A stretch of DNA of 55,203 nucleotides, from NCBI GenBank assembly GCA_002162955.1, contig MABD01000026.1:97768-152970 (forward strand), in the 5' to 3' direction. The position numbers were made by a program, and so were the translations under genes. The notes beneath the pieces are model-generated. The model saw only the letters and a program-made list of their open reading frames with translations. It was not told where the DNA came from and made no database searches. Shown here one piece after another: positions 1 through 43,070 of the stretch. Source of the stretch: Gammaproteobacteria bacterium 45_16_T64. Lineage in GTDB: Bacteria; Pseudomonadota; Gammaproteobacteria; Pseudomonadales; Ketobacteraceae. Each line of letters starts with the position of its first letter. The stretch's first letter is position 1.

Positions 1-3000
1 GCATTTTGCACGCAGTCGGAATTGTTGATGCCGATGAAGATGGCTGTTGAAAATACGCCAGATGTGAAAGGAACCCCTTGTTTAGCGACGGATACGTTTA
101 CAGATCCATTAGTGGGTGATTGGAAATGGCCGCAAACTACTGCTGACACCATTATGTTTCTGCAGTTTACGTCGGGTTCTACTGGGGATCCGAAAGGGGT
201 TATGGTATCCCATGCTAATATCCTGCATAACGAAGAAACCAGCCTTGTTACGGGGGAGCATGAGTCTCCGCTAGTTGTGGTTAATTGGATGCCGCAATAT
301 CACGACATGGGGCTAATTGGCAGCATATTATTGGTGCTTTATAGCGGTTGTAAGTTGGTTTCGTTATCCCCCATCGCCTTTTTACAAAAACCCATTCGAT
401 GGCTACGTGCCATATCGAAATATCATGCATGTGCCTCGGGTGGGCCCAATTTCGCCTATGAGCTGTGTTTACGAAAGATCAAAGATACGGATATTGAAGG
501 TTTAGACCTTAGTCATTGGCGTTATGCTTATAACGGCGCTGAAGCGATACGCGCCTCAACGATGGATCGTTTTTACGAAAAATTTAAGAATTCTGGTTTT
601 GAAATAAGGGCAATAAGCGCAATCTATGGATTAGCTGAAGGCACGTTGATGGTGACTAATACACCCCATCATACGTTTTATGAGCAGTGTTATTTGGATA
701 AGGAGGCATTACATACCCACAAAGCGGTTGTACTTCCTGAGGGTTCCGAAGGAGGGCGCTGGCTGGTGGGGTGTGGTAAGGCTGCTAACCAGGAAGTTCA
801 TATCGTCAACCCAGATACACTAAAAACCTGTAGTGAATTAGATGTGGGTGAAATATGGATTAAAGGGGAAAGTGTGTGCCAAGGGTATTGGGGACGCCCC
901 GACGCTTCGAAGGAAACTTTTCAGGCTTACACAAGTGATACGAACAGCGGACCATTTCTCCGAACCGGGGATTTGGGATTTCTAAAAAAAGGAGAGCTCT
1001 ATGTTACTGGTCGCCACAAAGAAGTGGTGATTATTGATGGTCGAAATCTATATCCTCAGGATATCGAAGATATCATACAGCCAGAAAGACCGATGTTAAG
1101 AAAAGGTTGCGGTGCAGCATTTGCGATTGATCTAGAGGATAAAGAATGCCTTGTTATGGTCCAGGAAATGGCTCGTGGTGTTGATATAGATAGTATTAAT
1201 TTCGAAAGGTTATCTGGGGATATTAGAAAGGATGTTTCTGAATCTTTTGGTGTAGGGCTACACACTATTGTCTATATCGAAACAGGTACATTTCTCAAAA
1301 CCTCCAGCGGCAAAATTCGCCGGCGAAGTATGCGAGAAAAATTCCTTAAAGGTAAACTTAAGGAGGTCCATAAAAGCACACAATTGGCTGTGACAAAGAG
1401 TGCTGCGTCTATTGTCGCGGAAGCGAATTTAGATAGAGTAAAAAAACTCGCCAGCGTAACGCGATTACCCATACAGACTAAACACCCTCATAAACGTAAG
1501 AGTGCAGAGCGTAAAACCGCAGAACATTTATTGCTTTCGTTGTTAGAGGCTCACCTTGGCATTGCTGCGAAAAATATCGATATTACCCAACCTTTCAGTG
1601 ATTTTGGCTTAGACTCAAAATCATTGGTCGGCTTATCTGGGGAGTTAAGTGAGGCTTTAGGGCGTTCGTTGCCCCCTAGGTTATTGTATGACTACCCGAG
1701 TGTAGATGCGTTGGCGCAGAATCTCGCAGGTGAAGATAGCGCTGAAGAAGGACTTAATTATAAACCTGAGCAAGCCTTGGGTGAGCCCATCGCCATCATT
1801 GGAATGAGTTGTCGATTACCAGGACAGGTCAGTACGCCAGAAGACTTCTGGAGACTATTGATGTCCGATGGTGATGCGATAGAGGTTGTACCGTCGACGC
1901 GCTGGGATGTTGAATCTTTGTATGATAAGGACCCCGGTGTTCCAGGTAAGGCAAGTACAAAGTGGGGTGGCTTTATCTCTCAGGTCTCTGCATTTGATGC
2001 AGATTTCTTTAATATTTCTCCAAGAGAAGCTAACTGTATGGACCCACAGCAGCGATTGTTGATGGAGACGTGTTGGGAGGCATTGGAGAACTCGAAAATT
2101 GCACCTTCGAGTCTATCGGGCACAGCCACAGGGATTTTTGTCGGCATTAGCAATTCTGATTATGAGCGTTTACGGCCAAATAGTGAAAACCCAAACGAAC
2201 CCTATAACGGTACGGGGAATGCGTTATGTATTTCGGCGAATCGTTTGTCTTACTTTCTCAATACTCACGGCCCGAGTCACGCAATAGATACTGCCTGTTC
2301 TTCCTCGTTGGTTGCGATTCATCAAGCTTGCCAAAGTCTGCGTATGGGGGAATCTTCATTGGCGTTGGTAGGAGGGGTAAATCTTATTCTCACCCCTGAT
2401 ATAAACATTACCTTTAGCAAAGCACGGATGATGGCCGCTGATGGTCGTTGTAAAACTTTCGACGATAGTGCTGATGGCTATGTACGGGGGGAAGGCGTTG
2501 GCATGTTTGTGCTAAAGCGCTTGTCAGAAGCGGAGCGCGACGGTGATCCGATTCTGGCGTTAATACGCGGTACGGGAGTCAGTCAAGACGGAAGGAGCAA
2601 CGGGTTAACTGCACCTCATGGGCCTTCGCAAGAGCTTGCTATCTCCAACGCTTTACGTGACGCAGGGTTGTCGCCACGTGATGTGCAATATGTAGAAGCC
2701 CATGGTACGGGAACTCCTTTGGGGGACCCTATTGAGATTGGTGCGTTAGGGCATGTCTATGGAGATGCTCGTGATCAGAATACACCCCTTTACGTAGGGT
2801 CAGCAAAAACTAATATAGGACACCTGGAAGCCGCAGCAGGGGTTGCTGGGTTATTAAAGACTGTGCTTTCATTGCGCCATGGCCGGGTGCCTGCCCATAG
2901 AAACTTTAATTGCCCAAATCGATATATACCTTGGGATTCTACAAATATTAAAATCCCCACTCATACAACAGACTGGCCAATAGCCGAAGGTGAAGTCGCT

Positions 3001-6000
3001 AGAGCAGGCGTGAGTTCCTTTGGTTTTGGAGGGACAAATGCCCATGTCATTGTGGAGAAATATAGCCCCCCCGATCCTGCCACCAGTACATCTAATGTTG
3101 TTGAAGACCTAATCGAGACGAAAGGAAATGATAGAAATAAGACATCAAATATATTAGCGCTATCGGCAAAGACGGAGTTGGGTCTGATTGACTTGGCGGA
3201 AAGTCATATTATTTCTTTATCCGGTGTAAAAGTCGACGACCTGGATAGCTATTGTTATTCGAATAATATTAGTCGAGATCATTTTTCTTACCGTGTGGCT
3301 TTTTCCACTGATTCAAAATCACAGTTGACTTCCATGTTACGTGATTTCTGTGAGATACGGCGATCAACTACAAAGCAGAAGCGCGATTATTCACTTGGTA
3401 CTTTTGTGTCGGCAAAAAAAGAAATCGGAAAAACGAAAACAGCATTTCTGTTTACCGGTCAAGGCTCACAATATGCCTGTATGGGAAAAGAACTTTATCG
3501 AGAACATTCGGTGTTTGCTGAATCTATAGATAGATGCCAAGCGATACTCAATAATGACGTTGATATTATTGATATCCTATTTCAAGCGGATTCCTCACGA
3601 ATACATCAAACTGAATATACACAACCGGCATTGTTTAGTTACGAATATGCACTGGCGAAGCTCTGGATGAGCTGGGGCGCGATACCTGATGTTGTGATTG
3701 GCCATAGTGTCGGGGAATTTGTTGCTGCGTGCGTAGCGGGTGTGTTTTCCCTGGAAGACGCATTGGCATTAATCTCCGTGAGGGGAAGGCTAATGGCTGG
3801 ATTGAGTGAGACAGGCAGCATGATGGCTGTGTTTGCTCATTCAGATGATGTGCAAGAGGAACTCAATCGATTTGAGGGAAGAGTGTCTATTGGCGCTATT
3901 AATGGGCCTGGTCAAGTGGTTCTATCAGGGGGAGAAAAAGAACTTGCGATTATCGCAGGCTTGCTCCAGAGCAAAAATATCGATACAAAGCCGCTTTCGG
4001 TATCTCATGGGTTTCATTCGCCTCTTATGGAGCCTGTGATAGAAGAATTTAGATTAGTGGCTGAGAAAGTTGAGTATTTTGAGCCAACGATCGATATCAT
4101 TTCCAATCTTGATGGTGAGTTGGCGAATTCTATTGTGGTTGAGGCAGATTATTGGTGCCAACATATTTTGGCACCTGTGCTATTCGAGGATGGAATGGCG
4201 ACGTTGAAGTCGCAAGATATTAATGTTTTCATCGAAATAGGGCCCAAAGCGACATTAACAGGGATGGGAAAGCGTTGCCTGGGTAATGGTGATATATTTT
4301 GGATAGCATCAGCTCAAGAGGGAATAGAAAACCAAAAATTACAATCGGCACTGGCTGAGTATTACTCCCACGGGGGACGAGTGAGTTGGTCAGCAGTTAA
4401 TTCTGTGCAGATCAACACTGATAGTAAACTTCCTAATTATCCTTTTCAACGTCAACATTATTGGTATAAAACGAAAACGTCACGAGGCACAACGATCGAG
4501 ACGGTTAGCTATGCTAACGATAACCGAGCGTATCATCCACTGTTAGGTCAGCGACTGAACTCACCGCGTCTGGCGAAAGGAGAGATGCACTTTGAGACAT
4601 TTATTAATTTGGACACCCCTCAGTTAGTTAAGGCTTTCTTTAACGAGGGAGCTGCGCTTATCGGTATACCGCTTTATTTTGAGATGATCCTAGAAAGCGG
4701 CGCAGAAGCTTTTCACACCACGGCAATCAACGTGATGGATTTGGAAGTATTCTCTGATCTTGTTGTGAGAGAAGGCGATAATATCAATATTCAAACCTTT
4801 GTTGAGCCGCTTGCAACCAATGAGCTACGAGTGAAGTGTTACGCTTTCACACCCGTTGAAGAAGGAGAAGATGCGTGGAGATTAGTCGCCAGTGCTGCAG
4901 TGGCACGTGTTGATCTTAGTCGAAGGCCAGGAACCAATTTGTTATCTGGGCTGCGTGAAAGAATAACCCACCGTATTGATGCCCAAGAGTACTTTGAGAA
5001 CTGTAGTGATCGCGGATTATTTTATTGTGCTGAAACGACGAAAATGATGACTCAGTTGTTCGGCAGCGAGAATGAGGTTCTAGGTGAGGTAGATTTATCA
5101 AAGGCTGAAAAGCGCGATATTGCGGGTGTGCGGTTACCCCATAATTTTATCGAGGCTTGCTTTCAAGTACTTGGCGCGCTCTGTTATACCGAAAGTGATT
5201 CGACTTTCATCCCTTATCGAGTGGCGCGACTTGATATTTATGAAGAGCCAAGGGAAAGAGGGTGGCTGTACGTATCACGGCTATCTTCATGGGAAGAAGA
5301 AAACAGGCATATTGACGTCAACGTGATGTGGATGAATGAATCCGGGGAGCCCTCGCTTAAAATCAGTTGTATGCGGATGAGCGCAAGTAATATGCCTCAG
5401 CAAGGGTTGGTGGAGCGTCTGAGTACATTGGGAAGAGAAGATCGGCTTAGAGAGATATCAGAGTTCCTGGTAAGGCTGGTGAGTAAAGGGTTGGGCATTG
5501 TTGCAGAAGACTTAGATAGAAACCGTTCGTTACTGGAGTTGGGGCTCGATTCCCTCGTCGCGATGGAAGTGTTAGGCAGAGTGAGATATACCCTAGAAGT
5601 CGATGTAAATATTGCGACACTGCAACAGGGCATGAGTATTAAATCGTTAACAAACAACCTTGACGATAAACTGTATGGATCGGAATTTACCGACAATAGC
5701 AGCGGTAGAGATGATACGTTTGGTGCATTGGTGTGTATTCAACAAGGAGATCCGGGACGCATTCCGTTAATATTGACCCATCCGATTGGGGGCAGCATTT
5801 TTTGTTATGCGGATTTGGCTCAGGCTCTAGGTACTGATCAGCCCATTTATGCGTTGCAAGCTCATGCCGTCATTGATGAGGAGTGTGCATTGCAGTCGGT
5901 TGATGAAATGACCTCAGAGTACGTCCGTGAAATTATTGGTATGCAACCGAGAGGTCCTTACCTTCTTGGGGGATGGTCTTCCGGCGGCATTTTTGCGTTA

Positions 6001-7446
6001 GAAATTGCCAACCGTCTACAGCGCCTAGGTGAAAAGGTCAGTATGTTGGTATTGATCGATAGCTCCCCCAAAATGGTACGGGACTTTACTACTGAGGAAG
6101 GAAAAGAGTCGACATTAATTAGATTAATGGCAATGGATGCAGGTATCGATATTGAATCGATACCTAATTATCAGAATTTATCCAGTGAGGATCTTCTTGC
6201 TGCTGTATTTGAGCAAGGAAAGAATGCCGGTGCATTGCCTGAACTGATGAATATATCCGCTTTAAAAAGGCGGCTTGCCGTCATGCATAAGATTTTAAAT
6301 ACAACCCTCAATCATGAGATATCCAGTTATGATGGATACGTCACGTTATTCAGAGCAGCTGACCCGTTACCTGAATTCTCGTCGTTGTCGCCAACCTATG
6401 ATTGGGAAAAATACGTCTTCAATATTCAGCATATACAGACGGTACCGGGCAATCATTTTAGTTTGTTACATGGATCCAATATAGGAACTTTGGCGTCCTA
6501 TCTTCGTAAAGATATTGCGACTCAAGTGCACACGGTAGATCGATATCTTCTAGAGGAGACTAGCAAAGGTCATTTTTCTTCCCTCAATACTGCTATTTAC
6601 AATTTGATTGTATCAACGAATCGTTCTGAGTTTTGCGCTAGTTTAACTGTTGATGAAAGTCATCCGTTTTTCTTTGATCACCCGTTAGATCACATCCCAG
6701 GAACGCTGTTGATTGAGGGGATACTGCAATTAGTGCAGCGTTCAACCGCTGAAGTTGACCCTGATGATGACCGGCTACATCCCTATGTGAAAAGTATGAA
6801 TGTATCGTTTCGACGTTGGGTTGAGAAAGGAGATACCGTTGATATCACGATAAAGGTGACCGGGGGAGGTCCAAACTCCCTTGATTTCTCGGGAGTGGTG
6901 ACGCAGCAGGACAACGTTGTGTGTGATGTGGAGTTGACCGTTGAATATCAGCGTCTGCCAGAACAGAAAGAGACCTGGGATACAAGCTCAGAATTGGCAG
7001 AGGACGACCTGTTACATAAGTTAAATCAGGACAATGTGCTAATTCATCCGGTGGAAAAAATATCCAATCGAGGCTTTGAAGCGAAATTACGGGTACCTCT
7101 AGAGTCCCACATATTCAGTGATGGTGGGGGTAGCGTCGCACCTCCACTCTATTTGTTGGAAGCGTCAAGGCAAATCGCAACACACCTTTCCCATTCGCTG
7201 TATGACGTGCCTTTGGGAACATCGATGAATCTTATATCCATTGCGATAATGCTACATTCGCCAGTGCTTCGACGAGATAGTTTGTCCCTATCATACCTTC
7301 CTTGGGAGGATGACGAGAAAGAAATAGATGAGGAGATCAAGGTGATTCATCTCGATCTTCTTGATTCTGATCGCGCGGTAGGTCATATCGATATAACCGC
7401 ACAAGCTGTTGCTAAAGAAACTTATCAAAAACAAAGAGGAATTTAA
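1..7446 (+). CDS. FAAL-ACP-KS-AT-DH*-ACP-TE-AfsA hybrid polyketide synthase (5' partial)
   Basis: The frame is open from base 1, so the N-terminus (roughly 100-150 residues of the ligase) lies upstream. Domains by nucleotide position: fatty-acyl-AMP ligase about 1-1370 (TSGSTGDPKG, YHDMGLIG, SGGPNFAY); ACP1 about 1510-1730 (GLDS, Ser codon 1615-1617); ketosynthase about 1780-3060 (DTACSSS, Cys 2296-2298; EAHGTGT; NIGHL); acyltransferase about 3440-4420 (GHSVGE; GFHS typical of malonyl specificity); DH-like double hotdog about 4530-5390 without the catalytic His; ACP2 about 5430-5680 (GLDS, Ser 5551-5553); thioesterase about 5740-6510 (GWSSG, Ser 5977-5979; GNHFS); AfsA-type hotdog pair about 6630-7430 (DHPLDHIPG; EASRQ). 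No KR, ER or MT domain is visible. Likely role (inference): activate a fatty acid, extend it with malonyl-CoA to a beta-ketoacyl thioester, and transfer it to an alcohol acceptor. It is the first visible gene of an operon continuing to 15183. Confidence 0.93.
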   Translation, partial: AFCTQSELLMPMKMAVENTPDVKGTPCLATDTFTDPLVGDWKWPQTTADTIMFLQFTSGSTGDPKGVMVSHANILHNEETSLVTGEHESPLVVVNWMPQYHDMGLIGSILLVLYSGCKLVSLSPIAFLQKPIRWLRAISKYHACASGGPNFAYELCLRKIKDTDIEGLDLSHWRYAYNGAEAIRASTMDRFYEKFKNSGFEIRAISAIYGLAEGTLMVTNTPHHTFYEQCYLDKEALHTHKAVVLPEGSEGGRWLVGCGKAANQEVHIVNPDTLKTCSELDVGEIWIKGESVCQGYWGRPDASKETFQAYTSDTNSGPFLRTGDLGFLKKGELYVTGRHKEVVIIDGRNLYPQDIEDIIQPERPMLRKGCGAAFAIDLEDKECLVMVQEMARGVDIDSINFERLSGDIRKDVSESFGVGLHTIVYIETGTFLKTSSGKIRRRSMREKFLKGKLKEVHKSTQLAVTKSAASIVAEANLDRVKKLASVTRLPIQTKHPHKRKSAERKTAEHLLLSLLEAHLGIAAKNIDITQPFSDFGLDSKSLVGLSGELSEALGRSLPPRLLYDYPSVDALAQNLAGEDSAEEGLNYKPEQALGEPIAIIGMSCRLPGQVSTPEDFWRLLMSDGDAIEVVPSTRWDVESLYDKDPGVPGKASTKWGGFISQVSAFDADFFNISPREANCMDPQQRLLMETCWEALENSKIAPSSLSGTATGIFVGISNSDYERLRPNSENPNEPYNGTGNALCISANRLSYFLNTHGPSHAIDTACSSSLVAIHQACQSLRMGESSLALVGGVNLILTPDINITFSKARMMAADGRCKTFDDSADGYVRGEGVGMFVLKRLSEAERDGDPILALIRGTGVSQDGRSNGLTAPHGPSQELAISNALRDAGLSPRDVQYVEAHGTGTPLGDPIEIGALGHVYGDARDQNTPLYVGSAKTNIGHLEAAAGVAGLLKTVLSLRHGRVPAHRNFNCPNRYIPWDSTNIKIPTHTTDWPIAEGEVARAGVSSFGFGGTNAHVIVEKYSPPDPATSTSNVVEDLIETKGNDRNKTSNILALSAKTELGLIDLAESHIISLSGVKVDDLDSYCYSNNISRDHFSYRVAFSTDSKSQLTSMLRDFCEIRRSTTKQKRDYSLGTFVSAKKEIGKTKTAFLFTGQGSQYACMGKELYREHSVFAESIDRCQAILNNDVDIIDILFQADSSRIHQTEYTQPALFSYEYALAKLWMSWGAIPDVVIGHSVGEFVAACVAGVFSLEDALALISVRGRLMAGLSETGSMMAVFAHSDDVQEELNRFEGRVSIGAINGPGQVVLSGGEKELAIIAGLLQSKNIDTKPLSVSHGFHSPLMEPVIEEFRLVAEKVEYFEPTIDIISNLDGELANSIVVEADYWCQHILAPVLFEDGMATLKSQDINVFIEIGPKATLTGMGKRCLGNGDIFWIASAQEGIENQKLQSALAEYYSHGGRVSWSAVNSVQINTDSKLPNYPFQRQHYWYKTKTSRGTTIETVSYANDNRAYHPLLGQRLNSPRLAKGEMHFETFINLDTPQLVKAFFNEGAALIGIPLYFEMILESGAEAFHTTAINVMDLEVFSDLVVREGDNINIQTFVEPLATNELRVKCYAFTPVEEGEDAWRLVASAAVARVDLSRRPGTNLLSGLRERITHRIDAQEYFENCSDRGLFYCAETTKMMTQLFGSENEVLGEVDLSKAEKRDIAGVRLPHNFIEACFQVLGALCYTESDSTFIPYRVARLDIYEEPRERGWLYVSRLSSWEEENRHIDVNVMWMNESGEPSLKISCMRMSASNMPQQGLVERLSTLGREDRLREISEFLVRLVSKGLGIVAEDLDRNRSLLELGLDSLVAMEVLGRVRYTLEVDVNIATLQQGMSIKSLTNNLDDKLYGSEFTDNSSGRDDTFGALVCIQQGDPGRIPLILTHPIGGSIFCYADLAQALGTDQPIYALQAHAVIDEECALQSVDEMTSEYVREIIGMQPRGPYLLGGWSSGGIFALEIANRLQRLGEKVSMLVLIDSSPKMVRDFTTEEGKESTLIRLMAMDAGIDIESIPNYQNLSSEDLLAAVFEQGKNAGALPELMNISALKRRLAVMHKILNTTLNHEISSYDGYVTLFRAADPLPEFSSLSPTYDWEKYVFNIQHIQTVPGNHFSLLHGSNIGTLASYLRKDIATQVHTVDRYLLEETSKGHFSSLNTAIYNLIVSTNRSEFCASLTVDESHPFFFDHPLDHIPGTLLIEGILQLVQRSTAEVDPDDDRLHPYVKSMNVSFRRWVEKGDTVDITIKVTGGGPNSLDFSGVVTQQDNVVCDVELTVEYQRLPEQKETWDTSSELAEDDLLHKLNQDNVLIHPVEKISNRGFEAKLRVPLESHIFSDGGGSVAPPLYLLEASRQIATHLSHSLYDVPLGTSMNLISIAIMLHSPVLRRDSLSLSYLPWEDDEKEIDEEIKVIHLDLLDSDRAVGHIDITAQAVAKETYQKQRGI

Positions 7447-7448: not shown

Positions 7449-8096
7449 ATGAGCGATATGAGAAATAACGTCCCGCTGTTTCTAATGCACTCGTCTGTGG
7501 TGTTGTTTACAGTGCTAGCTACACTAAAATTGCAGCACTGGGAAGGAATAATGTTTGGGTTAGGCGTTCTGACGGTAGGAGGCTATTTAAGCTGGTTGGT
7601 ATCAGAGTCCAGCGTATCGTTAACGGAATCCGATAAAGGTGAAACAAGTAAAGATAAAGGGACCTGTGAACTCTATGCATTTGGTCGAGCGCTTACAGTC
7701 GCGACAGCTCTATGGGCTCCGACATTATGGGTGTCGTTTAATTGGGTGATGGGTCTTGGATTGGTAATTTTCGTTTTTGGCGTATTGTTTCGACTCAATG
7801 GTATCAAAACATTGGGAGAATTCTATTCACATCGTGTTCGACTTGTAGGGGATCACAAGGTGATTGATACGGGACCGTACCAGTTTGTTCGTCATCCTGC
7901 GTATACCGGTATGCTCGCATCTCACTTTGGATTCGTACTGTTCTTCTATAGTCCTTGGGCAATGGCTGCGTTTCTATTCGTACTCGTACCTGCGGTGATT
8001 ACACGTATCAGGATCGAAGAGAGGGCATTGTTTGAACTCGACGGTTATCCGGAATACGCAGCGACCCATAAACGTTTAGTGCCGTTGGTTTGGTAG
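7449..8096 (+). CDS. Isoprenylcysteine carboxyl methyltransferase (ICMT)/PEMT-family membrane methyltransferase
   Basis: A 215-residue polytopic membrane protein with about five hydrophobic segments. The C-terminal half carries the ICMT/phospholipid-methyltransferase signature: GPYQFVRHPAYTG near residues 140-152, then RIEERAL and a GYPEYA tail near 190-205. Family members transfer a methyl group from S-adenosylmethionine to membrane-associated carboxylates, amines or thiols. It begins 2 nt after the PKS stop with an AGAGGA ribosome site about 9 nt upstream, so it is translationally coupled to the PKS. Most likely it O- or C-methylates the lipid-like PKS product at the membrane; the substrate is not visible from sequence. 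The closely spaced operon argues against a role in protein isoprenyl modification, which bacteria lack. Confidence 0.85.
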   Translation: MSDMRNNVPLFLMHSSVVLFTVLATLKLQHWEGIMFGLGVLTVGGYLSWLVSESSVSLTESDKGETSKDKGTCELYAFGRALTVATALWAPTLWVSFNWVMGLGLVIFVFGVLFRLNGIKTLGEFYSHRVRLVGDHKVIDTGPYQFVRHPAYTGMLASHFGFVLFFYSPWAMAAFLFVLVPAVITRIRIEERALFELDGYPEYAATHKRLVPLVW

Positions 8097-8106: not shown

Positions 8107-9087
8107 ATGAAAATTGTATTAACTGGTGCAACAGGGTTTGTTGGGCGGGCGTTGGTGTCCAATCTGTCTATCCTGACAGGCAGTCGGGAGCCCATTGAGA
8201 TTCGAGCGTTAGTACGGACGCCAGCGCAGTTTGTTGCTCCTGAAAATGTAACGGTATTTCCTGGATCTGTGACAGATATACCTGAGGGGCTATTTTTTGA
8301 TGAACCGCATGTGCTCATACACTTGGGGGTTAAGCAGATAGATCATGATGGTACCGGGTTTGATGAAGATAATGTGTTTGGCACCAAAAATTTGTTATCG
8401 AATACCAACCAACATACTTTAGGGGTGATCTATGGAAGTACGTTGTCTGTTCTGGGGCAAGGAGCGCAAAGCAATACGAGTGAACGTGATGTAATCAACC
8501 CCCAGACCCCCCTTGCGAGATCGAGGGCAGAAGCTGAGCGATTAATACTGACTAAGATGAAGCAAGATAAGCACTGGGGTTTTTGCTTGCGACCTCGTTT
8601 TATTCTTGATGTCAGTGATAAATTTGTTCTTCCTGGTATTCAAGGGTTAGCGAAGAAAGGTCTCTATATTGGCAATGGCCAGCAGCGATTTTCCATCATA
8701 TCAGTTCAAGACTACGCAAAAATCATCATCGAGCTTGTTGAATACATATTACTTGATAATGGCCAGAAGCCTGTTCAGCAGACCCCATTGAATGTAGGTT
8801 ATCGCAGGCCGGTAACCTTTGATTCGATATTTTCTGGATTTAGATTGGAAATGTCTTATCGATCAAAAGTAAAGCGATTGAGAATGCCTGGCTGGCTTCC
8901 ATTGCTTCTTAAGGGAGCTAAGAATCGAAAATTAACGGCCAAGGCAGTGCAGCTAGAATTGATAGGTTTTGATCATTATGGTGACGTGAATAAATTGGAA
9001 ACATTTATAGGCGATGAAATAACTAAAAAGGACGGTGAAGATATTCTTTACCAAATGATCAAAGATATTACGACAACGTCGTGTTAA
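8107..9087 (+). CDS. NAD-dependent epimerase/dehydratase-type SDR lacking the catalytic Tyr/Lys
   Basis: A 326-residue extended short-chain dehydrogenase/reductase. The N-terminal Rossmann motif TGATGFVG (residues 6-13) binds NAD(P). The conserved Ser region (YGSTLSVLG, around residue 111) and the following helix RAEAERL (140-146) are recognisable. At the usual YxxxK site the sequence reads LARSR: Tyr is Leu136 and Lys is Arg140, so classical SDR proton relay should not work. It starts 10 nt after the methyltransferase and sits in the middle of the PKS operon, where a reductase or epimerase acting on the polyketide or its acceptor would be expected. It may use another mechanism, bind ligand only, or be on its way to inactivity. 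Confidence 0.85.
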   Translation: MKIVLTGATGFVGRALVSNLSILTGSREPIEIRALVRTPAQFVAPENVTVFPGSVTDIPEGLFFDEPHVLIHLGVKQIDHDGTGFDEDNVFGTKNLLSNTNQHTLGVIYGSTLSVLGQGAQSNTSERDVINPQTPLARSRAEAERLILTKMKQDKHWGFCLRPRFILDVSDKFVLPGIQGLAKKGLYIGNGQQRFSIISVQDYAKIIIELVEYILLDNGQKPVQQTPLNVGYRRPVTFDSIFSGFRLEMSYRSKVKRLRMPGWLPLLLKGAKNRKLTAKAVQLELIGFDHYGDVNKLETFIGDEITKKDGEDILYQMIKDITTTSC

Positions 9088-9114: not shown

Positions 9115-11877
9115 GTGAAAAAGATTATTACTTGCACCGAACCTGCCAGTGGAAGTTCTATAGGCGGCAAATTCTCAAAACAAAGCGAGATGATTACCGC
9201 GGGCATTGCTGTCCCCGAATTCTTTTGTTTGACAATCGCGTTCTATGAAGAGGTCTTCGACAGTATACGCTCGGAAGTAGAAGCAATTCTCGATGCGATA
9301 GACTTTGATGATGGTAAAGACATTAGAGAGGCAGCGGACAGTATCCAACAGGTATTTCATGGGGTGGAATTATCCGTGGCCCAAAAAGATGAAATCCTGT
9401 TCGCTTTTGATGGCCAGTTTTCTTCGGATGTTATGGTGTCAGTCAGGGCCTCAACTGTTGGGCACAAGATTGAAGAAAGTGAGGACTCCGTCGATAATCC
9501 CTTTGCAGGAATGAGCGAGAGCTTCCTCTATGTTAAGCGAGATGAAATATGCGATAAAATAAAACAGTGCTGGGGCTCGGGGTTTTCTCAGGAATCGCTA
9601 ATCTATCGTCAAGTACAAGGAATGAACTTACTTGGTTTTGGTGTGGCGGTAGGCGTTCAGAAAATGGTCTTCGGTGAGCGTTCTTTTGTGCTTTTTACCG
9701 CAGACCCTAAAACCGCAGCTAAAGACCAAGTCATAGTCGCGGGTTACGGTATTGGTGAGGGTGTGGTGCAAGAGAGGGTGCCAGTTGATCATTATTTTGT
9801 TGCAGGTAAAACGTCGGAAATCACTCAAGATATTGCTGATAAAGATTGTATGCTGACGCTGGATAAAGACGCCGGGTCTGGTTTATGTGAATTACCTGTT
9901 GAAGAGAATTTGTGGAGGCAAGCTTGCCTCACTGACGCTGAGATCAAGCAACTAGTTGATATTGGAATACAAATCGAGTCACTTTTTGGATGTCCACAGG
10001 ATATCGAAGGTACGTTTACTGCAGAGGGAAGTCTGCATATCCTGCAATCTCGCCCAATAGCATTAGACTATTCGCGACAATTGATATGGACGAATACCAA
10101 TGTGACAGAGAGTTTCCCGGGAATATCCTCTCCGTTAACCTATACGTTTGCAAAGTACTTTTATAGAGTCATATTTTACGATAGTTATCGTCGATTAGGT
10201 GTGAGCCCACGAATGATTAATGATAATTTCGAGCCATTGGATAAGATGATTGGCTATCTTGATGGCCGCGTATATTACTGTTTGTCTCATTTCTATTTAC
10301 TGCACAAACAAAGTCCATTGTATCCATTGTTTGGAACGCATTGGGAAAATATGATTGGACTTACATCGTCCTTTCAATCTCATCAAGAAAGTAGCGATTT
10401 GTTCGCTATGTGGGGGAAAGTGAAGAAGTGGGCGCGGGTTGGTTCTAATCTTGTCGAGACGTTTTACCATTATCTAAATCATGATCGGTATATGTTTCAT
10501 TATCACAAATGGTGGGAAGATCTTATTTCTCCTATGCGCGGCAAGTCTTTTGAAGGGGATGATCCGTTAACCTTAGTCAAGCTTTTCCATAAGGTGTGGG
10601 GGGAGGTCGGTAACAATTGGGGGCTGACGCTGACCACCGATGGGTACTTGATACCGATGTATGGATTGTTAGAAACCCTGTTTAAGAAGTGGGGCCTTGA
10701 TGACGATCCCGGATTGCTGAGCGATTTACTTTGCGGTAATGATGAGACTTTATTGAGCGTCGAGATTATTTTGTCGTCTGTGAATATCGCAGAATTTGCC
10801 CGTGGAAATAGCGAGCTTAAACAAAAATTCAAAGATCTTTCAGAACATGAACTTTGGGAGGAAGTGAAGGCCAAAAAGGTCAATGCTGAATTTACTGAAA
10901 TGGTTGAGAAACACCTTCACTATTATGGTGACCGGGGGTTGCAAGAGCTAAAACTAGAGCAACCTATGTTGAGAGATACCCCCTGGGTATTAATCAAAAT
11001 GGTTAAGCAATATGTTTTTGCCGATGTCACCGTAGAGAGTATACGTAATCACGAACAGGGTGTTCGTGATAAAGCAGAAGTAGAGTTGGCTAGGTTGTTA
11101 GCCGGTAAAACTCAGAAACAGAGGATTCTAAATGTCCTGTTACCGCGTTTGCGACGATTGATTAGGCATCGCGAAAATTCCCGTTATTGTCGCAGTGAAT
11201 TGTACGGTTTTAGTAAGAATATATTTAAGGGACTTGCGCGATATTTTGTTCAGAGAGATATTTTAAATGAAATGACAGATATCTATTATCTGACTCAAGA
11301 TGAAGTGTTTGGCTATATTGATGGCACTGGGGTGACGGAGAACCTGCAAGTTATTGCTGACCTTCGGCGTAAGGAGCATGCTGAGAACCTAACGAAAGAT
11401 GTTGCGACCAATGTGACGACCTTGGGGGCCATTCGGGAAAATGTGCTTGCTCCTGTGGAAACAGGGCCTATCACCTACGATGAAGATGTATTGCAAGGGC
11501 TGGGTTCTAGTGCGGGCAAAGTAACTGGTATTGCAAAAGTGGTAGATGACCCCAATGACGCGGGGGATATCACCGAGGATATGATACTTATTGCCCGTGA
11601 GACGGACCCTGGTTGGTTGTTTCTCATGTTAGCATCAAAAGGGATGGTGGTGGAGAGAGGCAGTATGTTATCCCACACTGCGATTACTGGGCGAAAATTT
11701 GGTATTCCAACGATCGTCGCATTACCTGGGGCTACTACTCGTATACCTGATGGCGCGAGAATCGAAATGGATGGGTCATCAGGTATTGTTGTTCTCGTTG
11801 AAGAGCAGAGTACTTCCAGTGTCGAGGATAATAACGTTCAACAAACCCAAGACAACAAGGAATCCTTAAGTGACTAG
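9115..11877 (+). CDS. PEP-synthase/rifampin-phosphotransferase-like dikinase
   Basis: A 920-residue protein starting at GTG with GAGGA 7 nt upstream. The N-terminus (about 1-320) is the pyruvate-phosphate-dikinase ATP-grasp domain: IGGKFSKQSEM near residue 18, SVRAST near 110, and FTADPKT near 200. A middle region of about 450 residues (320-800) has no motif I recognise. The C-terminus (about 805-905) is the swivelling phosphohistidine domain, with GSMLSHTAITGRKFGIPT holding the likely phosphorylated His854. The order ATP-grasp / substrate region / His domain at the end matches rifampin phosphotransferase. Phosphoenolpyruvate synthase instead ends in a TIM barrel. By family mechanism it would transfer the beta-phosphate of ATP to a hydroxyl or carboxyl. 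In this operon the substrate is probably a biosynthetic intermediate or the finished product (self-protection), which is inference. Confidence 0.88.
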   Translation: MKKIITCTEPASGSSIGGKFSKQSEMITAGIAVPEFFCLTIAFYEEVFDSIRSEVEAILDAIDFDDGKDIREAADSIQQVFHGVELSVAQKDEILFAFDGQFSSDVMVSVRASTVGHKIEESEDSVDNPFAGMSESFLYVKRDEICDKIKQCWGSGFSQESLIYRQVQGMNLLGFGVAVGVQKMVFGERSFVLFTADPKTAAKDQVIVAGYGIGEGVVQERVPVDHYFVAGKTSEITQDIADKDCMLTLDKDAGSGLCELPVEENLWRQACLTDAEIKQLVDIGIQIESLFGCPQDIEGTFTAEGSLHILQSRPIALDYSRQLIWTNTNVTESFPGISSPLTYTFAKYFYRVIFYDSYRRLGVSPRMINDNFEPLDKMIGYLDGRVYYCLSHFYLLHKQSPLYPLFGTHWENMIGLTSSFQSHQESSDLFAMWGKVKKWARVGSNLVETFYHYLNHDRYMFHYHKWWEDLISPMRGKSFEGDDPLTLVKLFHKVWGEVGNNWGLTLTTDGYLIPMYGLLETLFKKWGLDDDPGLLSDLLCGNDETLLSVEIILSSVNIAEFARGNSELKQKFKDLSEHELWEEVKAKKVNAEFTEMVEKHLHYYGDRGLQELKLEQPMLRDTPWVLIKMVKQYVFADVTVESIRNHEQGVRDKAEVELARLLAGKTQKQRILNVLLPRLRRLIRHRENSRYCRSELYGFSKNIFKGLARYFVQRDILNEMTDIYYLTQDEVFGYIDGTGVTENLQVIADLRRKEHAENLTKDVATNVTTLGAIRENVLAPVETGPITYDEDVLQGLGSSAGKVTGIAKVVDDPNDAGDITEDMILIARETDPGWLFLMLASKGMVVERGSMLSHTAITGRKFGIPTIVALPGATTRIPDGARIEMDGSSGIVVLVEEQSTSSVEDNNVQQTQDNKESLSD

Positions 11878-12817
11878 TGACCATAAGGGTTTTGTCGATC
11901 GATTGCTGGCTTTTATGGATATAATTTATCAGCCAGGATTACATCTGGGTTTTGCCGCTTTCTGGTTTCTATCGTTACAGGGTGGTTTTGTTTTACTAAG
12001 TCAGGCCGAAGAAGCGTGGGTGCTTTCCCTATCCACTCTTCTCGGTATAGTGACGATGTTCTTGATTTTATTCTATCTTCGGGCGGTAGATGAGGTTAAA
12101 GACTTTGAATATGACAAGCAATACAATCCAGACCGTCCCCTGGTTTCTGGGGTGGTGACTTTTAGAGACGTCTATATATATTGGGTGTTAGCGTTTCTTT
12201 TTATCCCTGTTGCTAATTGGGTGTTTGAGCCCTGGTTAGCGATTTTTGTAATCATAGATATGCTATATGCATTGTTGCTTATTCTTCTTGAAAAATGGCT
12301 ACCTCTTATGGATAAGAACATGTTCTTTAATTTGGTGATCACCTATCCAGTGAGTATTGCGCTGAGTTTCTATACGCTGTTGCTCAGTGTGTCAATCGGG
12401 AATGTACAGTTCGATAGCAACGCCTTTTTACTTATCATGACCTACATATTGGCTTTTTTGCATTTTGAGATCGTACGTAAGAACCTTTGGCCAGTGATGG
12501 CTGATCCTGGGGAGAAATTCTATTCTTTTGATGTTGGTCCTTTACCTGCCGCGTTCTTTGGTTTTGGTTGCGGAGTCTTTGCGGTTGTTGGGGTTGTTTG
12601 CTTATATTCTCCTTGGTCCACTGAAGGTGCTGGGGCAGTGAGTGGCTGGTTACCGTTGTTAGCATTGGTTCCCGCAGTTAGCGCATTAATGTTGTTTCTT
12701 CGCAATCGTGAAGAACGCTATAACCCACGAAAATTTGCTGTGCTATTTCTTGTGGTTTTCTATGCAGCAAATTTCGTAAATGCGATTGTTACTAATTCAT
12801 TAACTGTGGGAATTTAG
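11870..12817 (+). CDS. UbiA-family membrane prenyltransferase
   Basis: A 315-residue integral membrane protein with about eight to nine hydrophobic segments. The first Asp-rich motif characteristic of the UbiA superfamily is seen as RAVDEVKDFEYD with PDRPLVSG directly after (nt about 12080-12150). A second acidic stretch, DPGEKFYSFD, lies in the later half (nt about 12505-12534). Family members attach a prenyl or related diphosphate-activated chain to an aromatic or other acceptor inside the membrane. The GTG start overlaps the end of the preceding gene by 8 nt, with AAGGA upstream, so translation is coupled. In context it probably prenylates, or otherwise joins a polar group to, the PKS-derived product. 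The donor and acceptor cannot be read from sequence. Confidence 0.85.
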   Translation: MTSDHKGFVDRLLAFMDIIYQPGLHLGFAAFWFLSLQGGFVLLSQAEEAWVLSLSTLLGIVTMFLILFYLRAVDEVKDFEYDKQYNPDRPLVSGVVTFRDVYIYWVLAFLFIPVANWVFEPWLAIFVIIDMLYALLLILLEKWLPLMDKNMFFNLVITYPVSIALSFYTLLLSVSIGNVQFDSNAFLLIMTYILAFLHFEIVRKNLWPVMADPGEKFYSFDVGPLPAAFFGFGCGVFAVVGVVCLYSPWSTEGAGAVSGWLPLLALVPAVSALMLFLRNREERYNPRKFAVLFLVVFYAANFVNAIVTNSLTVGI

Positions 12818-12825: not shown

Positions 12826-15183
12826 TTGAAAATGAATAGAGAAAGCAGCGCTACATTGGTGCGTCGGGTTTCACAATTGGCGTTAAAAAAACCGATAGTA
12901 TCGGTTGTATTAAGCCTATGTCTATTTTTGTTTTCTGGCTATGGCGCGCAGTTCTTTCGTAACACACTGGATTATCACTTCTTCTTTAGTGCAGATAATC
13001 CTCAATTGGCGGCATTTGATCGTTTGCAAAACGAATATTCGAAAACAGAGGCTGTCTTTGTCGCAATTTCCCCGGCGAACAACGATGTGTTTTCACCATC
13101 AAATCTTACCATGATAGAAGACTTTACTCGTGACGCATGGACGACACCGTATTCACAACGCGTAGACTCGTTGACGAATTTCCAATATACCGTTGCGACA
13201 GACGATCTACTTGATACTTCTGACCTCTTTGAAAATAGCATGACAATGGATTTGTCTGAACTTGATAAACGAAAACAATTTTCGCTTTCTGAACCCCTGC
13301 TGTTGAATTCATTGGTGGCTAACGATGGCTCGGTTGCTGGGGTTCGGATTACCATGAATATGCCGGGGATTGACCATGAGGCAGAAACTCCCGAAGTAGT
13401 ATTCTATATTCGTGACCTTGCCAAAAAGTATGAAGCAAAATACCCTGGACTCAAACTATATTTGACGGGCCAGATTGTTGTTGATCAAGCATTCCCTGAA
13501 TCCACGGCCGCAGACTTTAATTTCGTGTGGCCTGCATTCTTTTTGGTAATGATGTTACTGCTAATGTTCATCTATCGCAGCTTCTCGTATATGTTAGTGA
13601 CGATGGTGACCGGTGTGTTATCTATCGGAGCGGGTATGGGGATTATCGGCTGGACTCATATCAAAGTGAATGCCGCTATTTCCGCTGCACCAGTAATGAT
13701 TTTAACGCTAGCGGTGGCAGATTGTATTCATATTTTAAGCAGTTATACCCATGAACTGACCTTAGGCAAATCTAAGAAAGACGCGATGATTGAGAGCTTA
13801 CGTATTAACTTTATTGCGGTCTTGCTTACATCGCTGTTAACGGGGCTAGGATTCTTGACGCTACATTTTAACGATTCGCCGCCTTATCGTGCGCTTGGTT
13901 ATATTGTCGCGGCAGGTGTTGGCTTTGCATTCCTTTTTTCGGTAACATTTTTAGCGCCACTAGTGACATTGATTCCTCATAGAGCACCCACGCGAGATGG
14001 TGCTGGCGTTGAGCGAGTATCAAGGGCAATGGGTAAACTTGCAGCTTTTATTATTCGAAAAGATCGCAGTGTTTTTGTGGCGGTTACCCTAATAGCGACA
14101 GGATTATGTGTGTCTGTGGGGTTAAATCAAATCAATGATGATGCAGTGAAATATTTTGGAAAAAATCAGACGATGCGGCAACACTTGGAATTTGTAAATA
14201 CACGAATCACCGGTATCGGCACGCTGAATTACTCACTGAATTCTGGTATTAGCCAGGGTATAACGTCCCCCGCATATTTACGCCATGTGGAAGAATTTTC
14301 GGATTGGTTAAAGACTCAACCAGGAGTGTTACAAGTTGATACTTTTGTCGACGTAATTAAACGTATCAATAGAACCTTGCATGCGGATGACGAGGCTTTT
14401 TATCGAATACCCAATAGCAAAGAAGAAGTATCTCAATACATTCTATTATATGAACTATCGTTACCAGCGGGTATGGATGTGGGGAATGTAGTAACGATCG
14501 ATAAATCCGCGAGTCGTGTGAGAGTGTCAATGACTGATACGTCAGGCCCGGGGCATATTGGATTGGATGAAAAAGCTAAACAGTGGCTACGGAATAATGC
14601 ACCCAGCAGTATGTGGTCTGAAGGGGCATCGGTACCATTAATGTTCTCCCATATTAGTGCTCGTAGTATTGATGGCATGCTGTGGGGGTTGGTAGGGGCG
14701 CTGGTTATTATGTCCGGTTTATTGGTATTTATTCTTAGATCGCTAACGCTTGGCCTAATCAGCTTAGCGAGTAACATTGTACCTGTGGCTATGGGATTTG
14801 GTGTTTGGGGCTGGGTAAGCGGAGATGTTGATCTTGGGATCACTGTAACCTTGGGGATGGCGTTTGGTATTGTTGTGGATGATACCATTCATTTTCTAAG
14901 CAAGTATCAACGTGCCAGGAGGGAGTTAGGTTATTCCACCGAGCATGCAATTACCTATGCATTTAAAACGGTCGGTGTGGCGTTGTTAGTAACTACTATC
15001 GTTCTGATGGCCGGTTTTTCAATGCTTGGCTTCTCTGATATGAACATTACATCTAATATGGCGATATTAACAACGGTGACCATTGGCTGTGCGTTTTTTA
15101 TCGATTTTTTCTTTCTGCCTGGCTTATTGCTACGACTAGACAAGGCGAACAATAGTAGTGCTAAATCGGTAAATGTTCCTTAA
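12826..15183 (+). CDS. MMPL/RND-superfamily exporter (HAE3-like)
   Basis: A 785-residue protein of the compact RND type: an N-terminal TM helix, a periplasmic loop of about 170 residues, a TM bundle with VADCIHI (around 298), a second TM and loop, and a C-terminal bundle with VVDDTIHF (around 685). The charged residues in the two bundles match the proton-relay sites of the family. MMPL proteins export lipids and polyketide-lipids across the inner membrane. The gene follows the prenyltransferase by 8 nt. The start is ambiguous: TTG at 12826 (AGGGA 5 nt upstream) or ATG at 12832. It is almost certainly the exporter for the operon's product. No adaptor or outer-membrane channel gene is in the window. 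Confidence 0.92.
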   Translation: MKMNRESSATLVRRVSQLALKKPIVSVVLSLCLFLFSGYGAQFFRNTLDYHFFFSADNPQLAAFDRLQNEYSKTEAVFVAISPANNDVFSPSNLTMIEDFTRDAWTTPYSQRVDSLTNFQYTVATDDLLDTSDLFENSMTMDLSELDKRKQFSLSEPLLLNSLVANDGSVAGVRITMNMPGIDHEAETPEVVFYIRDLAKKYEAKYPGLKLYLTGQIVVDQAFPESTAADFNFVWPAFFLVMMLLLMFIYRSFSYMLVTMVTGVLSIGAGMGIIGWTHIKVNAAISAAPVMILTLAVADCIHILSSYTHELTLGKSKKDAMIESLRINFIAVLLTSLLTGLGFLTLHFNDSPPYRALGYIVAAGVGFAFLFSVTFLAPLVTLIPHRAPTRDGAGVERVSRAMGKLAAFIIRKDRSVFVAVTLIATGLCVSVGLNQINDDAVKYFGKNQTMRQHLEFVNTRITGIGTLNYSLNSGISQGITSPAYLRHVEEFSDWLKTQPGVLQVDTFVDVIKRINRTLHADDEAFYRIPNSKEEVSQYILLYELSLPAGMDVGNVVTIDKSASRVRVSMTDTSGPGHIGLDEKAKQWLRNNAPSSMWSEGASVPLMFSHISARSIDGMLWGLVGALVIMSGLLVFILRSLTLGLISLASNIVPVAMGFGVWGWVSGDVDLGITVTLGMAFGIVVDDTIHFLSKYQRARRELGYSTEHAITYAFKTVGVALLVTTIVLMAGFSMLGFSDMNITSNMAILTTVTIGCAFFIDFFFLPGLLLRLDKANNSSAKSVNVP

Positions 15184-15257: not shown

Positions 15258-16199
15258 ATGGGAAGATGGCGTTCCTTATCGATCTGCCGTGTTAATCCAG
15301 AGGTTGTGTTGAAAAATTCTGATTACAAAAACTTGTCTCGCTACGTCTCCAGCTACCTAGGTAGTTTGAAGAGTCATAGTGTCGAGATTAATGATCAGGA
15401 GTGGAATTATCTCGATGGAGGCCAAGGAGAAACTATTTTGTTTCTGCATGGTTTAGCCGGGTCAAAGGTATTGTGGCGCAGCTTAATGCAGAGCTATATA
15501 AATGACTATCGTGTTATTGCTGTCGATATTCCAGGGCTGTTTGTTGAGCAGCGATTTATTGGTCGCAAACATACCTACCGAGAACTAGCCAACTGGCTTG
15601 AGCTATTCCTAGAGCACCTTCAAATAGATAAATTACATATTGTTGGTCACTCCTCAGGGAGTTGTGTATCCAGCTGTTTCGCAAGTACTCGCCCGTCTAT
15701 GGTTGAGAGTGTCACTCTACTAAATCATCATGACGTATTGTCTGATGATGCTGTCGGCCACCCATCAACTGTGTTAAACACGGTGCTGGATGCTACGAAT
15801 GAAGAGGGGTGGGAAGACTTCCAGAAAAAACTGTTCTATTCCCCCCCAGCAATGCCTAAATTTGTTCAGCGCTACCGGTTGCGCTCAATGTTGAAGCATA
15901 AAGAAGGGTTCGTGCAAGTGGTACAAGATTTGGCAGAACTACGGCCTATGGCTATGTCTTATTTACGCAAGATCAAATGCCCTGTACTCACCGTTAATGG
16001 TAGCCATGATATATTCTCTCCACTGGAATTTCATCGTAGCTTAAAAAGTCAGATACCTTGGGGTGAGCATGTATTGATAGAACGTTGTGGTCATGCGAGC
16101 TTTTTAGAAAAGCCCGATGACATTCTAGCAATACACAAAAGCTTTCTAGACTCAGTTAAAGAAGGTGCTGAAAGCCTAGAGTATGGAGCAGGAATATAA
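15258..16199 (+). CDS. Alpha/beta hydrolase
   Basis: A 313-residue single-domain alpha/beta hydrolase. The oxyanion-hole motif LFLHGLAGS (residues about 60-68), the nucleophile elbow GHSSGSC (about 131-137), an Asp in NGSHDIFSP (about 250) and a His in CGHASF (about 275) give a full catalytic triad. It could be an esterase, thioesterase or lactonase. There is no ribosome site before the first ATG (15258). AGAGG at 15299-15303 sits 5 nt before TTG 15309, so the real protein may begin 17 codons later. It lies 74 nt after the exporter on the same strand and may be the last gene of the PKS operon, but the gap leaves this open. Confidence 0.85.
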   Translation: MGRWRSLSICRVNPEVVLKNSDYKNLSRYVSSYLGSLKSHSVEINDQEWNYLDGGQGETILFLHGLAGSKVLWRSLMQSYINDYRVIAVDIPGLFVEQRFIGRKHTYRELANWLELFLEHLQIDKLHIVGHSSGSCVSSCFASTRPSMVESVTLLNHHDVLSDDAVGHPSTVLNTVLDATNEEGWEDFQKKLFYSPPAMPKFVQRYRLRSMLKHKEGFVQVVQDLAELRPMAMSYLRKIKCPVLTVNGSHDIFSPLEFHRSLKSQIPWGEHVLIERCGHASFLEKPDDILAIHKSFLDSVKEGAESLEYGAGI

Positions 16200-39209: not shown

Positions 39210-39220
39210 AGTTGTTCTCT

Positions 39221-40273: not shown

Positions 40274-40276
40274 CAG

Positions 40277-43062: not shown

Positions 43063-43070
43063 ACTAATCA

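What the first reader, a model, noticed from the sequence alone, without database searches (positions are those of the whole stretch)
6630..7446. A-factor synthase (AfsA-type) domain fused to the end of a fatty-acid-primed PKS
The last 270 residues carry two AfsA-type hotdog repeats: DHPLDHIPG with a following Glu, and LLEASRQ with downstream VPLG. AfsA joins a beta-ketoacyl-ACP to a hydroxylated C3 acceptor to start gamma-butyrolactone and furan signals, and is known as a stand-alone actinobacterial protein. Here one protein would activate a fatty acid, extend it once without reduction (no KR) and hand the beta-ketoacyl chain to AfsA. That predicts a butenolide/furan-like or acyl-ester signal made by a proteobacterium.
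Basis: partly seen in the sequence, partly recalled or inferred. Interest (0 to 1): 0.88.

Follow-up and report, generated by a model that had tools for sequence, protein, structure and literature searches.

The report
Lipid synthase ending in A-factor-synthase domain
A bacterium of the Ketobacter family carries one giant enzyme that appears to load a fatty acid, lengthen it once and pass it to a domain related to the A-factor hormone synthase, and its neighbouring genes suggest a phosphate-bearing lipid rather than a plain hormone.

Summary
The last ~270 residues of the PKS are two AfsA (PF03756) hotdogs (E 4.6e-24, far above FabA or thioesterase hotdogs). The protein reads FAAL-ACP-KS-AT-(DH without its His)-ACP-TE-AfsA, so one unreduced extension is a fair reading. 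Three corrections. AfsA is neither only stand-alone nor only actinobacterial: gladiofungin's PKS ends in one (PMC7756420, passages). A TE with its motifs intact precedes AfsA. The two hotdogs are in swapped order relative to ScbA. The main new point is the neighbourhood: an ICMT-like methyltransferase, an atypical SDR, a PEP-synthase-like phosphotransferase (PEPS), a UbiA-like protein and an MMPL exporter, shared by four relatives. In 80 named PEPS loci the flanks hold AfsA in 73, ICMT in 72 and UbiA in 71. AfsA, PEPS and UbiA also share an operon in a genome that I take, by recalled length, for Salinispora tropica, hence its salinipostin operon. Best reading: the DHAP phosphate is kept and built into a methyl-capped, lipid-tailed cyclic enol phosphate. 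Every reaction is inferred. PEPS and UbiA also pair without AfsA (10 of 12 loci), so a prenylated glycerol lipid or plain butenolide remains possible.

The parts
1..1395 (+). Fatty acyl-AMP ligase (FAAL) domain; about the first 120 residues are not in the window (upstream, partly in a run of Ns)
   Evidence: PF00501 E 1.2e-41 and DIP2-like C-terminal domain; FAAL-type NCBIfam models, below their cut-offs, e.g. FadD32; N-terminal part at L003:15355-15792
1531..1719 (+). ACP 1 (GLDSKS, Ser intact)
   Evidence: PF00550 residues 511-573; Ser in 6 of 6 aligned fusions
1783..2907 (+). Ketosynthase, Cys-His-His intact
   Evidence: PF00109 and PF02801; motifs in 6 of 6
3445..4284 (+). Acyltransferase, GHSVGE and HGFH motifs
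   Evidence: PF00698 E 1.8e-54; motifs
4534..5385 (+). Dehydratase-like double hotdog, catalytic His lost
   Evidence: PF21089 and PF14765; His absent at the aligned place in 6 of 6 fusions, by eye
5446..5673 (+). ACP 2 (GLDSLVA, Ser intact)
   Evidence: PF00550 second stretch and PF23297 residues 1816-1891; Ser in 6 of 6
5764..6507 (+). Type I thioesterase, putative Ser/Asp/His present
   Evidence: PF00975 E 9.6e-26; motifs in 6 of 6; Pks13 TE among PDB matches
6577..6939 (+). AfsA hotdog B (DHPLDHIPG; corresponds to the C-terminal hotdog of ScbA)
   Evidence: PF03756; order test
7012..7401 (+). AfsA hotdog A (EASRQ, VPLG; corresponds to the N-terminal hotdog of ScbA)
   Evidence: PF03756; E-x-x-R-Q conservation
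7449..8096 (+). ICMT-like integral-membrane methyltransferase
   Evidence: PF04140 E 9e-20; PDB ICMT 5vg9 E 2.2e-8; an ICMT-like gene in the flanks of 72 of 80 PEPS loci
8107..9087 (+). Atypical extended SDR (TGATGFVG present, YxxxK absent)
   Evidence: PF01370/PF01073; motif search; aligned family of 13
9115..11877 (+). PEP-synthase-like phosphotransferase (PEPS), swivel His854
   Evidence: PF01326 and PF00391; His conserved in 7 of 7 aligned rows; best PDB matches 5hv2/5fbs, deposited as PEP synthase
11870..12817 (+). UbiA-like membrane protein, DExxDxxxD motif
   Evidence: No Pfam match at E 0.1; NCBIfam prenyltransferase PRK13592 E 9.9e-13 but 48 bits against a cut-off of 443; aligns with the presumed S. 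tropica protein that matches PF01040; family profile hits DGGGP synthase 6m31 E 1.4e-7 over 82 positions
12826..15183 (+). MMPL/RND exporter
   Evidence: PF03176 E 9.5e-33; syntenic in 4 relatives
15258..16199 (+). Alpha/beta hydrolase; membership of the cluster uncertain
   Evidence: PF00561 E 3.8e-25; 74-base gap; no counterpart found in the fetched stretches of the syntenic relatives

Best explanation
One protein activates a fatty acid (FAAL), loads it on ACP1, extends it once with a malonyl-type unit on ACP2 and leaves the beta-keto group untouched (no KR, DH without its His). The C-terminal AfsA didomain then joins the beta-ketoacyl chain to a C3 phosphate acceptor, most likely DHAP, as in A-factor synthesis; the resulting ester closes to a butenolide phosphate. 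Shown: the domains, their motifs and the recurring gene set. Inferred: every reaction. The phosphate is then kept, not removed. The PEP-synthase-like enzyme activates it by phosphoryl transfer, the UbiA-like protein closes a ring between the enol and the phosphate, and the ICMT-like enzyme methylates the remaining phosphate oxygen. The product would be a lipid-tailed relative of cyclophostin or salinipostin (a bicyclic enol phosphotriester), trimmed by the neighbouring P450 and fatty-acid hydroxylase and exported by the MMPL pump. The SDR may reduce the butenolide, but it lacks YxxxK.
For: AfsA didomain. Motifs give an unreduced chain. Syntenic cassette in 4 relatives of another genus. In 80 named PEPS loci the fetched flanks hold AfsA in 73, ICMT in 72 and UbiA in 71; collinear AfsA-ICMT-PEPS-UbiA on one strand in 50 of 80. 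AfsA, PEPS and UbiA lie together with an AMP ligase in one operon of a 5,183,331-base genome that I take, by recalled length, for Salinispora tropica, whose nine-gene spt operon is recalled to make salinipostins. Two of the 80 loci (L067, L073) have AfsA, PEPS and UbiA without ICMT. A HAD phosphatase of the kind beside AfsA in G186 and fused to it in G407 was found by phmmer in 0 of 80 PEPS loci. Cyclophostin carries a methoxy ester and cyclipostins a lipophilic ester on the same core (PMC6681047, passages), which fits ICMT as the capping enzyme.
Against: No product or reaction is known. PEPS plus UbiA also occur without AfsA: of 12 weaker PEPS loci fetched from the order, 10 carry UbiA and none AfsA or ICMT; one of two of these scanned with Pfam has HMG-CoA reductase and an AMP ligase fused to a CDP-alcohol transferase, the other HMG-CoA reductase and DUF3419. 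So the pair is not specific to enol phosphates. The UbiA profile's best solved relative is a prenyltransferase acting on a glycerol phosphate lipid, and Pfam does not recognise the window protein as UbiA. The salinipostin gene papers could not be read, and the species name rests on recall. No ICMT match was found in the 19.9 kb of the spt operon searched, while the window cluster lacks its NDK and luciferase-like genes. The TE before AfsA is unexplained. In gladiofungin an AfsA-region point change (E10080A) left the metabolic profile as in wild type, though deletion of most of the domain abolished the product.
Confidence: 0.45

Rival explanations
1. One reading: AfsA makes a butenolide phosphate that is dephosphorylated to a butenolide, butyrolactone or furan signal; the other genes decorate it.
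For: AfsA family and an unreduced chain. In Streptomyces, and as proposed for gladiofungin, AfsA chemistry ends this way (PMC7756420, passages). A phosphatase could lie elsewhere in the genome.
Against: No phosphatase family among the cassette's Pfam matches. The HAD type that partners AfsA in G186 and G407 was found by phmmer in none of the 80 PEPS loci. No TetR/ScbR-type gene among the neighbours scanned.
Confidence: 0.2
2. A hybrid glycerol lipid: AfsA acylates DHAP with the beta-ketoacyl chain, the SDR reduces the glycerol ketone, and the UbiA-like enzyme adds a prenyl chain as DGGGP synthase does; ICMT methylates.
For: The UbiA profile's best PDB match is DGGGP synthase, E 1.4e-7 over 82 positions, with the first Asp-rich motif conserved in 15 of 15 aligned rows. 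In a sister cluster type without AfsA, two of two Pfam-scanned loci have HMG-CoA reductase and one a CDP-alcohol phosphotransferase.
Against: AfsA, PEPS and UbiA share an operon in the presumed Salinispora genome, and salinipostins carry no prenyl group (recalled; the review passages describe an alkyl ester). The second Asp motif usual in UbiA enzymes (recalled) was not recognisable by eye. The SDR lacks YxxxK.
Confidence: 0.18
3. The TE domain releases the chain as a free beta-keto acid or transfers it, as the Pks13 TE does, and the AfsA didomain only binds or proofreads, or uses another acceptor.
For: TE Ser/Asp/His present in 6 of 6 aligned fusions; Pks13 is among the matches of the KS-AT and TE regions. 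AfsA hotdog B has lost the ScbA-type Arg in 53 of 53 swapped proteins.
Against: Hotdog A keeps E-x-x-R-Q nearly everywhere in swapped proteins (E 49 of 53 with D in 4; R 52 of 53; Q 53 of 53), so an active site looks selected for. In other phyla AfsA is encoded alone, in frames too short for a TE, beside the same ICMT, PEPS and UbiA genes.
Confidence: 0.1

Closest known systems
AfsA/ScbA/BarX butyrolactone synthases (PF03756, NCBIfam NF041195)
   Same: Two PF03756 hotdogs, DHxxDHxPG and E-x-x-R-Q motifs; expected use of a beta-ketoacyl thioester.
   Different: Hotdogs in swapped order; hotdog B lacks the Arg (one of the two ScbA proteins compared lacks it too); 99.2 bits against the equivalog cut-off of 200; fused to a PKS.
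Gladiofungin PKS GlaE (Burkholderia gladioli), terminal AfsA domain
   Same: AfsA as the C-terminal domain of a PKS in a proteobacterium.
   Different: Gladiofungin comes from a trans-AT multimodular PKS with AfsA in lieu of a TE (passages). Here a single module with its own AT, FAAL-primed, has both TE and AfsA and a PEPS/UbiA/ICMT cassette. The hotdog order of GlaE was not examined.
   Same: AfsA, PEP-synthase-like enzyme and UbiA-like protein in one operon, plus an AMP ligase.
   Different: The presumed spt operon has NDK, luciferase-like and acyl-reductase-like genes, no ICMT match in the stretch searched, canonical hotdog order, and a separate AMP ligase.
FadD32/Pks13 of mycobacteria
   Same: FAAL feeding ACP-KS-AT-ACP-TE (recalled); Pks13 is the second-best NCBIfam model, 866 bits, below its cut-off of 2100.
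   Different: Here the FAAL is fused, a DH-like domain without its His is inserted and AfsA follows the TE.

Membership tests
AfsA family (PF03756) | Score above the curated cut-off | tested here: met
   85.4 bits for the tail, cut-off 24
AfsA family (PF03756) | Double hotdog fold | tested here: met
   AlphaFold model, mean pLDDT 80.5; fold hits are generic hotdogs
AfsA family (PF03756) | Acyl transfer from beta-ketoacyl thioester to DHAP | not testable with these tools
   Needs enzyme assay
ScbA/BarX equivalog (NF041195) | Score above the equivalog cut-off | tested here: not met
   99.2 bits against 200
ScbA/BarX equivalog (NF041195) | Hotdog order A then B | tested here: not met
   B then A
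Salinipostin (spt) type operon | AfsA, PEPS-like and UbiA-like genes together | tested here: met
Salinipostin (spt) type operon | NDK and luciferase-like genes in the operon | tested here: not met
   No such Pfam match among the cluster and flanking genes scanned; models of the presumed S. tropica NDK, DUF6001-like and luciferase-like genes matched none of the 80 PEPS loci
Salinipostin (spt) type operon | Cyclic enol phosphotriester product | not testable with these tools
   Needs metabolite analysis
AfsA-terminated PKS (gladiofungin type) | AfsA as terminal PKS domain | tested here: met
AfsA-terminated PKS (gladiofungin type) | AfsA in place of a TE | tested here: not met
   A TE with Ser/Asp/His precedes AfsA; [quoted passage not shown]

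The most novel reading that the evidence does not exclude
A fatty-acid-primed, Pks13-like megasynthase with a domain-swapped AfsA terminus starts a membrane-bound pathway, AfsA-ICMT-PEPS-UbiA, to lipid-tailed, O-methylated cyclic enol phosphates in Gram-negative bacteria; stand-alone versions of the same core run in Actinomycetota, Myxococcota, Cyanobacteriota, Bacteroidota and Burkholderia. PEPS and UbiA would form a new phosphate-ring-closing pair.
Probability: 0.3. Interest if true: 0.8.

Novelty: new variant of a known kind. Interest (0 to 1): 0.6.

Why it matters
Cyclic enol phosphates are rare natural products that phosphorylate the active-site serine of hydrolases (PMC6681047, passages). 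How the phosphate ring is closed is, to my knowledge, open. A compact AfsA-ICMT-PEPS-UbiA gene set that recurs in distant phyla makes that step testable gene by gene, and extends A-factor-type chemistry from signalling to lipids. The swapped hotdog order is a clear case of domain permutation in an enzyme family.

Tried and rejected
Ordinary PKS dehydratase or thioesterase hotdog for the tail: rejected, AfsA 85.4 bits against FabA 24.8 and 4HBT 15.0. Structure comparison as a discriminator: of no use here, since hotdog thioesterases and PKS DHs match alike; the top VIA-align rows, mitoribosomal entries, were not followed. No solved AfsA-family structure was found by sequence: the 4 hits of the single sequence are all 3-hydroxyacyl-ACP dehydratases, E 7e-4 to 0.14, and the profile had none at E 0.01. 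A broken FAAL gene: rejected; the apparent frame change is a run of Ns in the assembly, left as it is. PEPS and UbiA as AfsA-specific enzymes: rejected, they also pair without AfsA. Viral contigs: no relative confirmed. Whether ICMT and fatty-alcohol genes exclude each other could not be tested: none of the 80 loci held relatives of the presumed spt NDK, DUF6001-like or luciferase-like genes. The canonical-order model (mean pLDDT 68.7) was too weak to use. Literature: no paper in the listings appeared to describe this fusion or operon; the listings of 16, 26 and 101 were capped, and I judged most by title and start of abstract. Two salinipostin gene papers known from memory are not held.
Full report
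What is there. The window begins inside a gene for a large type I PKS (window 1-7446; the open frame is 2519 codons). Pfam gives, in order, AMP-binding (FAAL type), PP-binding, ketoacyl-synthase, acyltransferase, dehydratase-like domain, PP-binding, thioesterase and two AfsA hotdogs. About 120 N-terminal residues are missing from the window; they lie upstream, partly in a run of Ns. The tail alone scores 85.4 bits for PF03756, against 24.8 for FabA and 15.0 for 4HBT. An AlphaFold model built on 21 sequences is a double hotdog (mean pLDDT 80.5, pTM 0.82); hotdog thioesterases and PKS dehydratases match it about equally. So the fold fits, and the family call rests on sequence.

I aligned the window protein with five full-length fusions (four from the same family and one Myxococcales MAG, L031). 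KS Cys and both His, AT Ser, both ACP Ser and the putative TE Ser/Asp/His are present in 6 of 6. The DH lacks the catalytic His at the aligned place in 6 of 6, by eye. No KR is found by Pfam. The prediction of one extension without reduction is therefore sound.

Swapped hotdogs. The first hotdog of the window protein matches the C-terminal hotdog of ScbA-type proteins, and the second matches the N-terminal one. NCBIfam's ScbA model shows the first half of this (best stretch: profile 188-289 on tail residues 34-141). Single-sequence comparisons, which do not depend on my own profile, agree. The first hotdog hits the C-terminal half of 10 of 10 canonical-order references, best E 2.6e-10. The second hits 8 of 10, weakly (E 0.004 to 0.64), each time best in the N-terminal half; in two of the 8 a still weaker second hit lies on the other half. 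Of 85 AfsA proteins compared, 53 are B-A (swapped), 11 A-B (including two ScbA proteins and the presumed Spt9) and 21 show only hotdog A (four duplicate loci were dropped first). In a quick tree of 63 rows (the 21 A-only rows and one partial row dropped), swapped and canonical proteins fall on two sides of one branch, SH-aLRT 95. The 13-row clade that holds the window (support 100) consists of proteins fused to a KS. The profile was built from swapped proteins, so it leans to them. Canonical-order AfsA genes also occur beside ICMT, SDR, PEPS and UbiA genes (L032, L041, L062, L077), so both orders serve the same gene set. In swapped proteins hotdog A keeps Glu in 49 of 53 (Asp in 4), Arg in 52 of 53 and Gln in 53 of 53. 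Hotdog B keeps Glu in only 12 of 53 and Arg in 0 of 53, against 8 of 11 each in canonical ones. The window protein has the hotdog B Glu; its four relatives in the family do not.

The neighbourhood. Packed behind the PKS, with gaps of -8 to 27 bases, lie an ICMT-like methyltransferase, an extended SDR, a PEP-synthase-like enzyme, a UbiA-like protein and an MMPL exporter. The UbiA call is weak for the window protein alone: no Pfam match and 48 bits for an NCBIfam model with cut-off 443; it rests on the family alignment. Upstream are a P450 and a divergent fatty-acid hydroxylase. Four genomes of the same family but another genus (G404, G408, G409, G411) carry the same cassette. Among 57 relatives searched with the tail, 9 had a match: G000, these four (E 5.3e-33 or better) and four weak ones (E 4.8e-8 or weaker); 0 of 4 other genomes of the own genus had one. 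With the PEPS profile, 16 of 390 genomes of the order matched at E 1e-100, and 5 reached over 1600 bits, all in this family.

Spread. A scan of named genomes with the PEPS alignment returned 80 loci, the cap. Within the fetched flanks 73 hold AfsA, 72 ICMT, 71 UbiA, 41 an SDR, 16 a FAAL-like ligase and 14 a KS (open frames, iterated profiles, E up to 1e-3). The order AfsA-ICMT-PEPS-UbiA on one strand holds in 50 of 80; a number of the others are contig ends. Annotated S. clavuligerus pSCL4 has these four genes in this order, the UbiA-like one named hypothetical. S. durmitorensis has a variant with nitroreductase and P450. Loci with AfsA are assigned to Pseudomonadota, Myxococcota, Bdellovibrionota, Actinomycetota, Cyanobacteriota, Bacteroidota and Bacillota; several are MAG contigs.

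Link to salinipostins. In a draw of 250 genomes from the family of Micromonospora rosaria, 16 matched the PEPS profile. One, G627, is 5,183,331 bases long, which I recall as the length of Salinispora tropica CNB-440. Its operon reads PEPS, AMP ligase, a DUF6001-like gene (below cut-off), an acyl-reductase-type SDR, NDK, UbiA, luciferase-like, AfsA. I recall the salinipostin spt operon as nine genes with the butyrolactone synthase as spt9; the papers could not be read here. No ICMT match was found in the 19.9 kb searched. Cyclophostin carries a methoxy and cyclipostins a lipophilic ester on the same bicyclic enol phosphate (PMC6681047, passages). Hence the inference that ICMT is a methyl-capping alternative, and that AfsA, PEPS and UbiA are the ring-forming core.

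Against this. PEPS and UbiA also travel together without AfsA: of 12 further PEPS loci from the order, 10 have UbiA and none AfsA or ICMT. Two of these were scanned with Pfam: both have HMG-CoA reductase; L150 has an AMP ligase fused to a CDP-alcohol phosphotransferase; L146 has DUF3419. A Roseinatronobacter plasmid is similar: UbiA, PEPS, DUF3419, AMP-binding. The UbiA profile's nearest solved relative is DGGGP synthase. The SDR lacks YxxxK in 13 of 13 aligned rows, by eye, so its role as reductase is open. For contrast, an AfsA gene of the order (G186) sits beside a HAD phosphatase and one of the family (G407) is fused to one, and that HAD type was found by phmmer in 0 of 80 PEPS loci. This argues that the phosphate is kept in the cassette.

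Verdict. The premise that AfsA is known only as a stand-alone actinobacterial protein is wrong: gladiofungin's authors already name terminal AfsA domains in several taxa (PMC7756420, passages). What seems new, within the searches I could make, is the FAAL-primed, TE-containing, hotdog-swapped fusion and the AfsA-ICMT-PEPS-UbiA gene set around it; homologues of the butyrolactone gene cluster in 12 phyla were reported before (as cited in PMC12114271, passages). I rate the phosphate-retaining, salinipostin-like reading at 0.45.

Noticed in passing
L146-L155 (Pseudomonadales genomes, incl. two of the same genus, L149 and L151): A sister cluster type pairs PEPS-like and UbiA-like genes with an AMP ligase (10 of 10 loci) and often an MMPL pump (6 of 10), without AfsA; the two scanned with Pfam have HMG-CoA reductase, once fused to a kinase, and one has a CDP-alcohol phosphotransferase. 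Product unknown.
   Followed up: partly
L021:5818-8883 (G407, same family): A KS-AfsA-HAD phosphatase protein, with a single AfsA hotdog, beside a second KS protein and an MMPL pump.
   Followed up: partly
L033, L035, L036, L038, L049, L089, L103: KS and swapped AfsA fused in shorter proteins with a separate FAAL gene and two ICMT-like genes, in MAGs of several phyla (three of the seven also scanned with Pfam).
   Followed up: partly
window 19605-21785 (-): A VTT (DedA/TVP38-type) membrane domain fused to a pyridine nucleotide-disulphide oxidoreductase.
   Followed up: no
window 15258-16199 (+): Alpha/beta hydrolase 74 bases behind the exporter; could be unrelated or, if the product inhibits serine hydrolases, a self-protection gene.
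   Followed up: no
L003:15741-15767: A run of Ns in the assembly directly before the window splits the FAAL coding region into two frames.
   Followed up: yes
window 38553-43071 (-): FMN-binding, NQR2/RnfD-, RnfC- and FeS-cluster proteins in a row, an Rnf-type electron transport set.
   Followed up: no
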